From positions 1 through 64,000 of the IMG/VR virus record IMGVR_UViG_3300033182_000489: a stretch of 64,000 nucleotides of DNA, one strand, 5' to 3'. The DNA is from a virus. Position numbers and translations under genes: made by a program. Each line of letters begins with the position of its first letter. Positions within the stretch are counted from its first letter, which is position 1. Shown here piece after piece: positions 390-41,391 of this stretch. The notes beneath the pieces were generated by a model. It was not told where the DNA came from. It worked only from the letters and a program-made list of their open reading frames with translations, and searched no databases.

Positions 390-1586
390 CTTGAGGGTGG
401 GTCTTCGACGGGAGATCTTGTCCTGTAGGGACTCCTTCGGAGAGGCATTCTCCCCGATAGGCTCGGCGGCTTCGGGACGGCCCGAGGCTCCGATCCACCC
501 GACCTCCACGTCCGTCTGGACGTACTTGTCGAAGCGGTCCCTGTCGGGATCATGGTGTTGCACACGGGCTGCGGGCTGATTCAGCAGGTCAGGGTTGATC
601 TCGGCCAACTGCTCGGGCGTGTACCCGACGATGGTTGTCCGACCGCTGATCTGGCGGGCTTCCGCGTTCTCCTGCGCCTTGCGCCACGCGGCCTCGCGTT
701 CCTGGCGAGCCTTCTCCAGCCGTGCTCGGTGGTACTCCTTGTACTGCTCGACCATGAGGTCGTGGTAGTCCTTCTCGCCCCGGACGGCGCGCATCAGTTC
801 GTCCTGCATCTCGTCCACGGTCTGGGAGGCGTGGACCTTCGGCACCTCAAAGGTCTGCCCGTTGACCGTGACCGTGATGGGCTTCTGCTCCTCACGTTCG
901 CCGCTGATGATCCAGTTGACCGCTTCCTCGATGGCTCTCTGCTTGTGGGCCTTGCGTTGCTCCTCCCACCTGTCAGTGGATTTCTTGAGTTCCTTCGCGC
1001 CCTTGTTCGACATCGAGCCGACGATGCTGCGGGTGTGTGCCCACTGGCGCAGGTCCGCATCAAAGCGGTCTTCCGCCCGGTTGTAGGCCGTCCACATTCG
1101 CTGCACGACGTTCTGGGCCCTCTGTGGGGCTCCCTGGTTCTTCCACAGGGTCCGGGAGTAAGGCTCGTTGCAGAAGGCGTGCGCGATGCGTGCAGCCCGT
1201 GCGAGCCGATTCCGCAGCCCGATGATGTACGGGTGGTAGACCTCGACGTGCTCGTGCCGGGTGTTCTCCAACCACTCCTTGAAGATGTGGTAGGCGGCGT
1301 TCATGTCGCCTGAGTCGATACGGTAGCCGTTGATCATGTGGACGGATGCCGCGATGTGGTGACGCTTCCAGTTGGTCCCGTCTGCGGTCGCTCGCATCAG
1401 GAAGTCAAACCGGTTGTGCGCGGACATCGTGCGGAAGACCACCACGGAGCCTTCCATGGGCACCATCTGGTGCAGGAAGCCCGTCGTGATCAGTTCCTCT
1501 ACGTCCTGGTAGAGGAACCGTCTGTTGTCCGCCTCTTGGAGCAGCGCCTCCTCGGCGGCTTCGCGTAGGAGATCCTCACGATCCAT
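384..1586 (-). CDS. Second tail-assembly-chaperone-type protein, in frame with the gene upstream
   Basis: A 400-residue protein beginning MDREDLLREAAEEALLQEAD, mostly charged helix, with a long coiled-coil-like Arg/Glu/Gln segment around residues 200-310. It sits between a chaperone-like gene and the tape-measure-like gene, the position of the downstream half of G/GT-type tail assembly chaperone pairs. It has the same reading frame as the upstream gene, separated from it only by TGA and three codons, and its ATG lacks the clear GGAG-type ribosome binding site most genes here have. It may therefore be made wholly or partly by TGA readthrough or by coupling. No family was recognised with certainty. 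Confidence 0.6.
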   Translation of the reverse strand: MDREDLLREAAEEALLQEADNRRFLYQDVEELITTGFLHQMVPMEGSVVVFRTMSAHNRFDFLMRATADGTNWKRHHIAASVHMINGYRIDSGDMNAAYHIFKEWLENTRHEHVEVYHPYIIGLRNRLARAARIAHAFCNEPYSRTLWKNQGAPQRAQNVVQRMWTAYNRAEDRFDADLRQWAHTRSIVGSMSNKGAKELKKSTDRWEEQRKAHKQRAIEEAVNWIISGEREEQKPITVTVNGQTFEVPKVHASQTVDEMQDELMRAVRGEKDYHDLMVEQYKEYHRARLEKARQEREAAWRKAQENAEARQISGRTTIVGYTPEQLAEINPDLLNQPAARVQHHDPDRDRFDKYVQTDVEVGWIGASGRPEAAEPIGENASPKESLQDKISRRRPTLKP

Positions 1587-38952: not shown

Positions 38953-39458
38953 CACGGCTCCCCCCCATCTGCGGGGACGCCCTCACTGCGGGGAGGGAAG
39001 AACCGAAGCACATTGGCCTCGATCTCCTCGTCCGTCATCTGACCGATTTCGGCAGCGATCTGGTTGCCGATGTACTTGGTAGCCATGATGCGGGCGTCGG
39101 GCTTGGGTTCGGTGTCCTTCATGGCTTGCCACTCCTCGCGGGTCATGCCCGTAGTTACCCGCCTGCCCCCACTCAACTCGTCGCTCTCCAGCGCCCGCGT
39201 GAAGTTTGCCCACGACTGCGCTTCCTCCCGCGCCTCGCTGGCCGACACGGGAACCACCGTCGCGCCCCACGCCAGCGCCCGCTCCCGCGTCTCGGGCACG
39301 GTCTGCCGCTGGAGCATGTCCAGCAGCCACGCCCGCTCCTCATCAGTCAACGTCGGCCACAACTCCTGGATGGCTGCCTGCACCTCGCGGTAGACGCCCA
39401 AGGAGCGGAAGTGGCTGTAGCGGATGGCGCACAGCAGGGTGGTGGTGATGGCGGTCAT
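38952..39458 (-). CDS. Helical protein (168 aa), unknown function
   Basis: Starts MTAITTTLLCAIRYSHFRSL, with ATG overlapping the previous stop. Mostly helices: LTDEERAWLLDMLQRQTVPE, then REEAQSWANFTRALESDELS. Its ribosome site lies inside the 29-bp repeat that ends the upstream gene. No family recognised. Confidence 0.5.
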   Translation of the reverse strand: MTAITTTLLCAIRYSHFRSLGVYREVQAAIQELWPTLTDEERAWLLDMLQRQTVPETRERALAWGATVVPVSASEAREEAQSWANFTRALESDELSGGRRVTTGMTREEWQAMKDTEPKPDARIMATKYIGNQIAAEIGQMTDEEIEANVLRFFPPRSEGVPADGGEP

Positions 39459-39829
39459 GGCGCAGCCTCCAGCGCAGCCACGAGGGCTTCGGCCTCGGTG
39501 TCAAAGTAGGCCCACAGGGTCCAAGGCCGATAAACGAGGCTGCCGCTTTCCCATGCCTCCCGAACTTGCGCCAGCAGCACGCCCAGGGTCGCCGGGTCGC
39601 GGAAGTCGGGCCACCAGCCCGAACCTTTTGCGGGCCAGCCCCAAGACGGCGTCATCTGATGACCGCCCGCAGACATGACAGGGCACCACTCGCCCTCGTG
39701 GTCGTACCAGAAGCAGAGGCGGTGCTCCTTTGGGTCGGAGCCGTCGTACATCGCGAGCACCCCCGCCGCCCACCGGAACCCCGCCTTAAGCGCCCGCAGC
39801 CCAAACGCCTTCGCTTCGTCGTCGGTCAT
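39455..39829 (-). CDS. Member of a local paralogue family ending ALVAALEAA (124 aa)
   Basis: Starts MTDDEAKAFGLRALKAGFRW; residues about 80-124 contain DPATLGVLLAQVREAWESGS and end EALVAALEAAP. The DPATLG.LL..VREAW block and the C-terminal tail recur in the genes at 40470 and 41035, so the three are related. I recall similar small proteins in many tailed phages, without known function. Confidence 0.55.
   Translation of the reverse strand: MTDDEAKAFGLRALKAGFRWAAGVLAMYDGSDPKEHRLCFWYDHEGEWCPVMSAGGHQMTPSWGWPAKGSGWWPDFRDPATLGVLLAQVREAWESGSLVYRPWTLWAYFDTEAEALVAALEAAP
39456..39484 (-). repeat. 29-bp gene-end repeat, copy R1
   Basis: Encodes LVAALEAAP plus the next gene's GGAGG and ATG. Differs from R2-R4 at one to four positions. 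Confidence 0.75.
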
Positions 39830-40473
39830 TCCGCAGCCTCCAGCGCGGCCACGAGGGCTTGACGGGCAGCGACCCAGGCGGCGGCCTCGGCGGCCTCCTC
39901 GGCGGCCCTAGCGGCCTCCTTGGCGACCCAGGCGGCCTCCTCGGCGGCGGCCTCGGCGGCCCCCCTGGCGGCCCTAGCGGCGGCCCAGGCGGCGACCCAG
40001 GCGGCCCCCTCGGCGGCCCTAGCGGCCTCCTTGGCGACCCAGGCGGCGGCCTCGGCGGCGGCCTCGGCGGCCCTGGCGGCGGTCCTGGCGGATACATCAT
40101 CAATCACCGGCTCCAGCGCCCGGAGCGTTGCGGCTTCGCCGCGTAGACCCGCCGACTCCAGCGCCAGGGGCGCAACCACCCTGGCGGCGTGGTCGGCCAG
40201 AACGTAAGCGCGGGCCTGCTCGGCCTTCGGCGTCGAGTGCGACCCCACCAGCATAGGGGCGAGGTCGTGCAGATAGCGCGCCCGCAGCGCATCCCCTTCG
40301 GGGCCGAAGCCCATTGCATCGTTAAGGGCCGCCGCATACGCGGTCAGCACCGGACAAGCGCAGGCTGGCGCGTCGGTGTGGGGCTCTCCTGCCAGATATG
40401 CCACGGCTTCCATGAGGCACGTCCCATCCTCGCGGGTGGCGTGCGGCCCGTAAGTCAGTGTGTAGTCAGTCAT
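39826..40473 (-). CDS. Phage protein with an Ala-rich repeat helix (215 aa)
   Basis: The N-terminal 90 residues (CLMEAVAYLAGEPHTDAPAC, then LTAYAAALNDAMGFG) resemble a small protein I recall from many tailed phages. The rest is a long Ala-rich helix of imperfect units (AAEAAAWVAKEAARA) that has clearly expanded by duplication. It then ends with the LVAALEAAE tail shared with its neighbours, although the main body is unrelated to them. Function unknown. Confidence 0.55.
   Translation of the reverse strand: MTDYTLTYGPHATREDGTCLMEAVAYLAGEPHTDAPACACPVLTAYAAALNDAMGFGPEGDALRARYLHDLAPMLVGSHSTPKAEQARAYVLADHAARVVAPLALESAGLRGEAATLRALEPVIDDVSARTAARAAEAAAEAAAWVAKEAARAAEGAAWVAAWAAARAARGAAEAAAEEAAWVAKEAARAAEEAAEAAAWVAARQALVAALEAAE
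39827..39855 (-). repeat. 29-bp gene-end repeat, copy R2
   Basis: Same role and reading frame as R1: C-terminal tail plus ribosome binding site of the next gene. Confidence 0.75.
39900..40048. repeat. Imperfect GC-rich repeat array inside the Ala-rich gene
   Basis: A unit of about 36 bp (GGCGGCCCTAGCGGCCTCCT and onwards) occurs near 39901 and again near 40012, with shorter GGCGGC-type copies around it. It encodes the Ala-rich helix. Confidence 0.65.
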
Positions 40474-40874
40474 TCCGCAGCCTCCAGCGCAGCCACAAGA
40501 GCGGCGGCTTCGGTGTGGTCAGATTGCAAGGACGTGCCCACAACTCGCCAGCCATGCACGCCGCCCTCAGTCAGCAGAGGCTGGCAGGTCAGCCAGTCGC
40601 AACCCCATGCCTCCCGCACCAGCCCGAGCAGGCAGCCCAGCGTCGCGCCGTCGTCCAGGTCGGGCAGGTCTGCCTCCCAATCATCCGTCATCTCGTCCAG
40701 GCGCAAGCCGGTATCCAAAGACAGCATCCCAGGCTCCCAGCGCCAGTGTCGGCAGGCGACGGCTCGTTTTGCAAGTTCATTCATCACTCGGTCATCTCGG
40801 TCACAAGTACACTCCTGCTCCAAAGGGCCGGAGTCATAGCCCGCGTCACAGCGAGCGCATTTGTACCACTTCAT
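40470..40874 (-). CDS. Zinc-ribbon plus paralogue domain (134 aa)
   Basis: Starts MKWYKCARCDAGYDSGPLEQ at an ATG overlapping the previous stop (ATGA). Residues 1-25 form a four-Cys ribbon. From residue 31 (MNELAKRAVACRHWRWEPGM) it matches the gene at 41035, then LGCLLGLVREAWG and the LVAALEAAE tail. It appears to be a fusion of a small ribbon to the local paralogue. Confidence 0.55.
   Translation of the reverse strand: MKWYKCARCDAGYDSGPLEQECTCDRDDRVMNELAKRAVACRHWRWEPGMLSLDTGLRLDEMTDDWEADLPDLDDGATLGCLLGLVREAWGCDWLTCQPLLTEGGVHGWRVVGTSLQSDHTEAAALVAALEAAE
40471..40499 (-). repeat. 29-bp gene-end repeat, copy R3
   Basis: Same role as R1 and R2; one base from R1-like sequence in the Val/Leu codons. 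Confidence 0.75.
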
Positions 40875-41038
40875 TCTTCCTCTGCTTCCACGGGTTCCGC
40901 GCCGGTCCCCTTGCAGGTCTTCGCCATGTAGGGTTCGCGGTTGCGGGTCATTATTGAGTGTCCTGCGATGACGCCGTGCCGCGTCAACGGCAGTCGCGCC
41001 CCGCAGGCGGGACATGTTCCTTTCTTATTCTTGCTCAT
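40871..41038 (-). CDS. Small zinc-ribbon protein (55 aa)
   Basis: ATG 41038 overlaps the previous stop (ATGA). KKGTCPACGARLPLTRHGVI, later AGHSIMTR and KTCKGTG: the CPxCG ... H ... C.G.G pattern is common among small phage ribbons. Function unknown. Confidence 0.55.
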   Translation of the reverse strand: MSKNKKGTCPACGARLPLTRHGVIAGHSIMTRNREPYMAKTCKGTGAEPVEAEEE

Positions 41039-41391
41039 GGCGCAGCCTCCAGTGCGGCGACGAGCACCGCAGCGTAACTCTCGTGTCGAGTCTGCCGCTT
41101 GCGGGACGGCGGGTCGATGACCCACGCCCCAAGCGCCTCGCCGTCCAGGCAGGTCGGAAGCCACGCTGGATCGAGCCGTGCGAGCCGCACCAGCGCGAGC
41201 AGACAGCCCAGCGTGGCGGGGTCTTCGAGGTCGGGGGTTGCCCCCGCTGGGACAACCGTATGCCCGCCCTGAGTCCGCCACACACGGTCGCAGGCTACAG
41301 AATCTCCATCCTCATCGACCACCAAAGGCAGCATCCCCGGCATCCACCGCCAGCCTGGACAGGCTACGGCGCGTTTTGCAAGTTCAGTCAT
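41035..41391 (-). CDS. Local paralogue, MTELAKRAVAC type (118 aa)
   Basis: ATG 41391 behind AGGAG, overlapping the previous gene by eight bases. MTELAKRAVACPGWRWMPGM, then DPATLGCLLALVRLARLDPA and the tail LVAALEAAP. Closest relative within the window is the C-terminal part of the 40470 gene. I recall this family from many tailed phages; function unknown. Confidence 0.6.
   Translation of the reverse strand: MTELAKRAVACPGWRWMPGMLPLVVDEDGDSVACDRVWRTQGGHTVVPAGATPDLEDPATLGCLLALVRLARLDPAWLPTCLDGEALGAWVIDPPSRKRQTRHESYAAVLVAALEAAP
41036..41064 (-). repeat. 29-bp gene-end repeat, copy R4
   Basis: Most diverged copy (three changes from R1), same frame and role. Confidence 0.75.

What the first reader, a model, noticed from the sequence alone, without database searches (positions are those of the whole stretch)
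39455..41064. Four genes end with the same 29-bp cassette carrying the C-terminal tail and the next ribosome site
Copies at 39456, 39827, 40471 and 41036 each encode LVAALEAA(P/E) at the end of a gene and supply GGAGG and ATG for the next. Three of the host genes are paralogues but the fourth (Ala-rich) is not. The cassette therefore seems to move as a gene-end module and may let genes be swapped while keeping coupled translation.
Basis: partly seen in the sequence, partly recalled or inferred. Interest (0 to 1): 0.6.

Follow-up and report, generated by a model that had tools for sequence, protein, structure and literature searches.

The report
Phage gene-end adaptor for gene swapping
In a group of uncultured phages, many unrelated neighbouring genes end in the same short stretch, which codes the tail of one protein and the ribosome-landing site of the next, and related phages swap whole genes exactly at that stretch.

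Summary
In detail: four minus-strand genes end in LVAALEAA(P/E)*, whose DNA contains GGAGG 7 nt before an overlapping ATGA start. The tail is not a free element. It is the native last helix of a phage protein family unmatched in Pfam, PHROGs, NCBIfam or 50,697 cultured phages. In a sample picked without using the tail, 79 of 86 family genes overlap the next start. Codon use shows selection for the ribosome site. Unrelated genes carry the tail (Ala-rich, HNH endonuclease, a short membrane protein), and one ORF consists of little else. Relatives sharing the upstream gene lose homology within 3-9 nt of ATGA; relatives sharing the downstream gene lose it at the tail's upstream edge. All four window junctions show such one-sided breaks, and tails break more often than other SD-ATGA junctions. 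A second, unrelated gene-end cassette (GEHRREExx) behaves the same way, and the Ala-rich gene family carries different tails in different phages. Best reading: coupling sequences at gene ends double as short homologous recombination joints. Precedents exist (Island3 gp67/68, boundary sequences, SAS), so this is a widespread new variant of a known kind. RBS and joint function are inferred, not tested.

The parts
41036..41064 (-). gene-end tail copy 1 (ends gene A, starts gene B)
   Evidence: sequence; homology to L162 holds upstream (0.77) and in the tail (0.85) and drops to 0.27 after ATGA
40471..40499 (-). gene-end tail copy 2 (ends gene C, starts Ala-rich gene D)
   Evidence: against L183 upstream 0.97, tail 0.82, downstream 0.25; the L022 homologue of gene D follows a different paralogue
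39827..39855 (-). gene-end tail copy 3 (ends Ala-rich gene D, starts gene E)
   Evidence: L022 shares gene D including its tail, then a different paralogue follows
39456..39484 (-). gene-end tail copy 4 (ends gene E, starts gene F)
   Evidence: L098 has gene F after a different paralogue: upstream 0.33, tail 0.88, downstream 0.67
41046..41050 (-). GGAGG Shine-Dalgarno inside tail copy 1, 7 nt before the next ATG; the other copies are at 40481-40485, 39837-39841 and 39466-39470
   Evidence: sequence; codon choice in relatives keeps GGAGG
41035..41391 (-). gene A, tail-family paralogue, 118 aa; SD GGAG before ATG at 41391
   Evidence: model mean pLDDT 86.8, tail forms the last helix, residues 106-116
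40871..41038 (-). gene B, 55 aa, zinc-ribbon-like, no tail (ends EAEEE*)
   Evidence: weak sub-threshold Pfam zinc-ribbon match
40470..40874 (-). gene C, tail-family paralogue, 134 aa with a Cys-rich N-terminal extension
   Evidence: C-terminal half about 90-97% identical to L183
39826..40473 (-). gene D, Ala-rich protein, 215 aa, not related to the tail family
   Evidence: no hit to the family HMM; homologues L136, L192, L238, L240, L246 and L268 carry other or no tails, L022 the same one
39455..39829 (-). gene E, tail-family paralogue, 124 aa
38952..39458 (-). gene F, 168 aa, unrelated next gene started by tail copy 4

Best explanation
The tail is the native C-terminal helix of an abundant phage protein family. 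Its DNA doubles as the ribosome-binding site (GGAGG, 7 nt) and overlapping start (ATGA) of the next gene in a tightly packed operon. Because the next gene depends on it, its DNA is held constant at many gene ends. It therefore serves as a short stretch of homology (about 30 bp) at which recombination exchanges whole genes or gene halves without breaking coupled translation. Unrelated genes acquire it when they replace a family member's body but keep its end. Shown here: coupling geometry, codon constraint, one-sided homology breaks at the tail, unrelated hosts, ORFs that are little more than tail. Inferred: that it works as the RBS in vivo, and that homologous recombination rather than chance joining plus selection makes the junctions.
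For: (1) Coupling: in a sample chosen by a mid-gene motif, 79 of 86 distinct family genes have an ATGA/GTGA/TTGA start overlap. (2) RBS constraint: in 136 coupled tails the second Leu codon ends in G 126 times, the first Leu 19 of 129, other Leu codons in the same genes 47%; Glu is GAG in 132 versus 63% elsewhere; Fisher p 2e-27 and 6e-21. (3) Joints: pairs sharing the upstream gene stay about 90-95% identical to ATGA and fall to near baseline within 3-9 nt; pairs sharing the downstream gene stay about 85-90% identical through the tail and fall at -30 to -48. Only 5 of 50 pairs sharing the downstream gene share the upstream one, versus 64/226 at other SD-ATGA junctions and 22/39 in matched contig pairs (p 6e-3 and 4e-6). 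All four window junctions have a one-sided relative. (4) Unrelated hosts: Ala-rich (window, L022), HNH_3 endonuclease (L151), 43-aa membrane protein between two tails (L040), others. (5) Short tail ORFs: MKNHEALVAALEAAP in L141 and MTIERGEHRREEKP in L252. (6) The second cassette, GEHRREE, is start-overlapping in 57 of 58 copies and sits on several unrelated bodies. (7) The Ala-rich family carries LVAALEAA, GEHRREE or EGT-type ends, or none.
Against: Other SD-ATGA junctions in these contigs also break more than random positions, so part of the effect is general gene-boundary mosaicism. Loci were fetched by tail or family motifs, which can inflate tail breaks. When the tail lacks a following start, GGAGG is still kept in about half the few cases (p=0.08). 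No recombinase was recognised among the window proteins scanned. Non-family hosts are few for this tail (about 5 convincing bodies), and Ala-rich or coiled-coil hosts (L145, L161, L180) could be convergent.
Confidence: 0.68

Rival explanations
1. Ordinary: a conserved C-terminal helix of a gene family in compact phage genomes. Breaks at gene ends arise by illegitimate recombination with selection against broken genes, and the tail plays no part in joining.
For: The tail is native and conserved in the family; other SD-ATGA junctions also break more than random positions; ATGA overlaps are common in phages (PMC8022706).
Against: Unrelated bodies carry the same tail DNA, some ORFs are little more than tail, and breaks exceed those at other coupled junctions in matched contig pairs.
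Confidence: 0.22
2. The peptide itself is the function: a C-terminal tag (docking helix or degradation signal) shared by co-acting proteins.
For: The peptide is highly conserved and lies on some unrelated proteins.
Against: Synonymous sites are constrained in the way an SD requires; the Ala-rich family carries quite different tails in different phages; the second cassette has no peptide resemblance but the same geometry.
Confidence: 0.08
3. A site-specific, integron-like cassette system in which a recombinase acts on the 29-bp element.
For: Gene plus conserved end repeated in tandem resembles cassettes; L040 shows a small gene inserted between two tails.
Against: No inverted repeats, no unusual single-strand folding, no fixed crossover base; sequence varies and is coding.
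Confidence: 0.02

Closest known systems
Mycobacteriophage Island3 genes 67/68 (PMC3029335)
   Same: An extra gene whose last 18 residues and DNA match the end of the upstream gene; recombination between about 50-bp gene ends proposed
   Different: A single case described as the first in mycobacteriophages; here one tail recurs on about a hundred genes in some 85-100 contigs, and a second cassette exists
Short conserved boundary sequences of lambdoid phages (Susskind and Botstein 1978; Clark et al. 2001, as cited in PMC3029335)
   Same: Short homologies at module borders proposed as recombination joints
   Different: Here the joint is coding, contains the RBS, and lies between individual small genes
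Start-associated sequences (SAS) of cluster K mycobacteriophages (PMC3203893)
   Same: A repeated SD-containing sequence just before the starts of genes of different families
   Different: SAS are described as start-associated sequences (GGGATAGGAGCCC), about half with an inverted repeat upstream; here the element codes the upstream protein's tail and marks gene swaps
ATGA-interlinked nin-region genes of lambda and P22 (Kroger and Hobom 1982, cited in PMC8022706)
   Same: Tightly packed small accessory genes joined by ATGA
   Different: No shared coding tail is described in what I read; the family here is not matched by sequence to nin genes

Membership tests
Boundary-sequence recombination joints in phages | short conserved sequence at module borders, with homology ending there on one side | tested here: met
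Boundary-sequence recombination joints in phages | exchange caused by homologous recombination at that sequence | not testable with these tools
   needs crosses; about 30 bp is the minimal homology quoted for RecA and Red (PMC2327257)
Start-associated sequences (SAS) | SD-containing repeat upstream of starts of unrelated genes | tested here: met
Start-associated sequences (SAS) | the sequence GGGATAGGAGCCC | tested here: not met
   tail consensus differs: CTGGAGGCTGCGCCATGA
Integron gene cassettes | attC-like inverted-repeat recombination site | tested here: not met
Phage ABA-sandwich-like fold (1r7l; family name from memory) | sequence match to a Pfam, PHROGs or NCBIfam family or to PDB sequences | tested here: not met
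Phage ABA-sandwich-like fold (1r7l; family name from memory) | same fold | tested here: inconclusive
   best PDB hit 1r7l, Z 4.8, rmsd 3.8 over 80 residues, spanning the model; Foldseek E 1.4

The most novel reading that the evidence does not exclude
These uncultured phages use a small set of stereotyped gene ends (LVAALEAA, GEHRREE, possibly EGT-type) as standard adaptors. Any gene that acquires one can be inserted in an accessory operon with its neighbour's translation preserved, and a second conserved block inside the family genes shuffles N- and C-terminal halves. Together these would form a combinatorial gene-reassortment system selected for easy gene exchange.
Probability: 0.25. Interest if true: 0.8.

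Novelty: new variant of a known kind. Interest (0 to 1): 0.56.

Why it matters
Why mosaic phage genomes so often break at gene borders is long debated: random joining plus selection, or recombination at short shared sequences. PMC3029335 notes that such sequences cannot be found at most borders. Here is a natural set in which the shared sequence is present, is under separate selection as a ribosome site, sits at many borders, and coincides with homology breaks. That makes the question testable. It also suggests a simple rule for how small accessory genes are added to phage operons without upsetting expression.

Tried and rejected
Cultured phages: no tblastn match for two family members, and no megablast match for the first 25 kb of the window. 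Genome contigs: only one short hit, in an Actinomycetota MAG contig, so the host is unknown. Pfam, PHROGs and NCBIfam: no family. RNA folding around the four junctions is not unusual, so no structural SD switch was claimed. KVAALEAAE ends of large phage proteins matched the DNA pattern but are an unrelated coiled-coil end and were set aside. Absence of GGAGG when coupling is lost was only suggestive (p=0.08). No recombinase was found among the window proteins scanned; most window proteins have no match, so this is weak. PIPEEP ends proved to be a single family, not evidence for swapping. The structural match to 1r7l (Z 4.8) is too weak to name a function.

Full report
What is there. The window is 64 kb of a 67.9-kb IMG/VR virus record. 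It encodes a family-A DNA polymerase, a DnaB-like helicase, an SNF2-type helicase and an NAD-dependent ligase, so it is a tailed-phage-like genome. On the minus strand, genes A (41391-41035), C (40874-40470), D (40473-39826) and E (39829-39455) end with LVAALEAA(P/E)*. Gene B (41038-40871), between A and C, does not. In each tail GGAGG stands 7 nt before an ATG that overlaps the stop as ATGA. A degenerate pattern finds only these four places in the record and its reversed control none.

The tail belongs to a family. A, C and E align over their length with the tail in register. Relatives are common in uncultured viral contigs: 85 loci by protein search, 97 stretches with a degenerate tail pattern, 96 with a mid-gene motif. 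Consensus: L.RRAVAC..WRWMPGM ... PDLxDPATLGCLLALVREAWG ... TEAEALVAALEAAP. Pfam, PHROGs and NCBIfam do not know it, and two members have no tblastn match in 50,697 phage records. The AlphaFold model (pLDDT 86.8) has the tail as the last helix; the nearest solved fold is a Bacillus cereus phage protein, 1r7l, at Z 4.8, too weak to name a function. So for three of the four genes the tail is native.

It is constrained as a ribosome site. In the sample chosen by the mid-gene motif, 79 of 86 distinct genes overlap a following start. Across 136 coupled tails the Leu codon that must give the first G of GGAGG ends in G in 126 cases. The other Leu codon of the same peptide ends in G in 19 of 129, and Leu codons elsewhere in these genes in 47%. 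Glu is GAG in 132 of 136, versus 63% elsewhere.

Unrelated genes carry it. Gene D is unrelated to the family, as are an HNH_3 endonuclease with a C-terminal HTH in L151, a 43-aa hydrophobic protein lying between two tails in L040, and L107. A 15-codon ORF in L141, MKNHEALVAALEAAP with its own SD, is little more than the tail. L145, L161 and L180 are less certain because their own sequence is Ala-rich or coiled-coil.

Genes are exchanged at it. Among tail sites in different contigs, 45 pairs share only the downstream gene, 27 only the upstream gene and 5 both. Identity of the same-upstream pairs stays near 0.9-0.95 up to ATGA and reaches about 0.35-0.45 within 9 nt. Identity of the same-downstream pairs is about 0.85-0.9 through the tail and reaches 0.27 at -48. 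The chance that a pair sharing the downstream gene also shares the upstream one is 0.10 at tails, 0.28 at other SD-ATGA junctions and 0.56 in matched contig pairs. Every window junction has a one-sided relative: A|B with L162, C|D with L183, D|E with L022, E|F with L098. Selection of loci by tail or family motif is a possible bias, and ordinary coupled junctions also break more than random positions.

A second joint and a second cassette. Inside the family genes the PDLxDPATLG block is about 75% identical in DNA between genes whose halves are otherwise unrelated (0.28-0.29). Of 15 pairs sharing the C-half and 17 sharing the N-half, only 2 share both. A different gene end, (IER)GEHRREExx*, occurs in 49 stretches. 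It overlaps the next start in 57 of 58 distinct copies and sits on its own ERAAVVAWLR family and on several unrelated bodies. A 14-codon ORF in L252 is nearly all this tail. The Ala-rich family shows the point best: its native end appears to be ...TVETLQxSALDLLERM. It is uncoupled in L268, followed by GEHRREE in L136, L192 and L246, by EGT-type ends in L238 and L240, and replaced by LVAALEAA in the window and L022. In L238 the gene before it also ends in EGT.

How it most likely works. Translation of each gene delivers ribosomes to the SD-ATGA of the next (inferred from geometry and codon constraint). Because the downstream gene needs that sequence, it stays constant at many borders. Its 29-33 bp are near the minimal homology quoted for RecA- and Red-dependent recombination (about 30 bp, PMC2327257). 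Exchange at such joints would keep reading frame, stop, SD and start intact. Whether the exchange is homologous or the survivors are simply selected was not tested.

What is known. Island3 gene 68 of mycobacteriophages is a single case of the same thing (PMC3029335). Boundary sequences and SAS are the general precedents (PMC3029335, PMC3203893), and ATGA chains are classic in the nin region (PMC8022706). The novelty is the scale, the dual coding and RBS nature of the joint, the recurrence on unrelated genes, and a second cassette of the same design.

Noticed in passing
L010, L073, L136, L151, L192, L224, L246, L248, L252, L273: A second gene-end cassette, GEHRREExx* (GGCGAGCACCGCCGCGAGGAG), with start overlap in 57 of 58 copies and on several unrelated proteins, including Ala-rich proteins; L017 has a related end (GEHRREGEP) on a methylase-like protein.
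   Followed up: partly
L151, about 439-1278 (- strand): An HNH_3 endonuclease with NUMOD4-like and HTH parts ends in LVAALEAAP and follows a family gene with an altered tail (LVAALEASPTE): perhaps a homing endonuclease inserted at the tail.
   Followed up: partly
L141 274-321; L252 about 376-420: Tiny coupled ORFs made almost only of a gene-end tail (MKNHEALVAALEAAP, MTIERGEHRREEKP).
   Followed up: partly
tail-family genes, e.g. window 40470-40874 versus L183: N- and C-terminal halves are shuffled at a conserved mid-gene DNA block (DPATLGCLLALVREAW); function of the shuffled halves unknown.
   Followed up: partly
window 39826-40473; L022, L136, L192, L238, L240, L246, L268: Ala-rich phage protein family with conserved N-terminal domain (CxMEAVAYxAGEPHTDxPxC) and long ARAAAWDAA-type repeats of varying length; a homologue is in human faecal phage record MT835534.
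   Followed up: partly
window 40784-40874: Gene C seems to fuse a small Cys-rich (CxxC) segment to the tail-family domain, right after a separate zinc-ribbon-like gene.
   Followed up: no
L090, L109, L132, L137, L139, L140, L152, L159: Several large phage proteins, tail-fibre-like by sequence, end in ETKVAALEAAE with a following overlapping start; the end looks convergent with the tail, not homologous.
   Followed up: no
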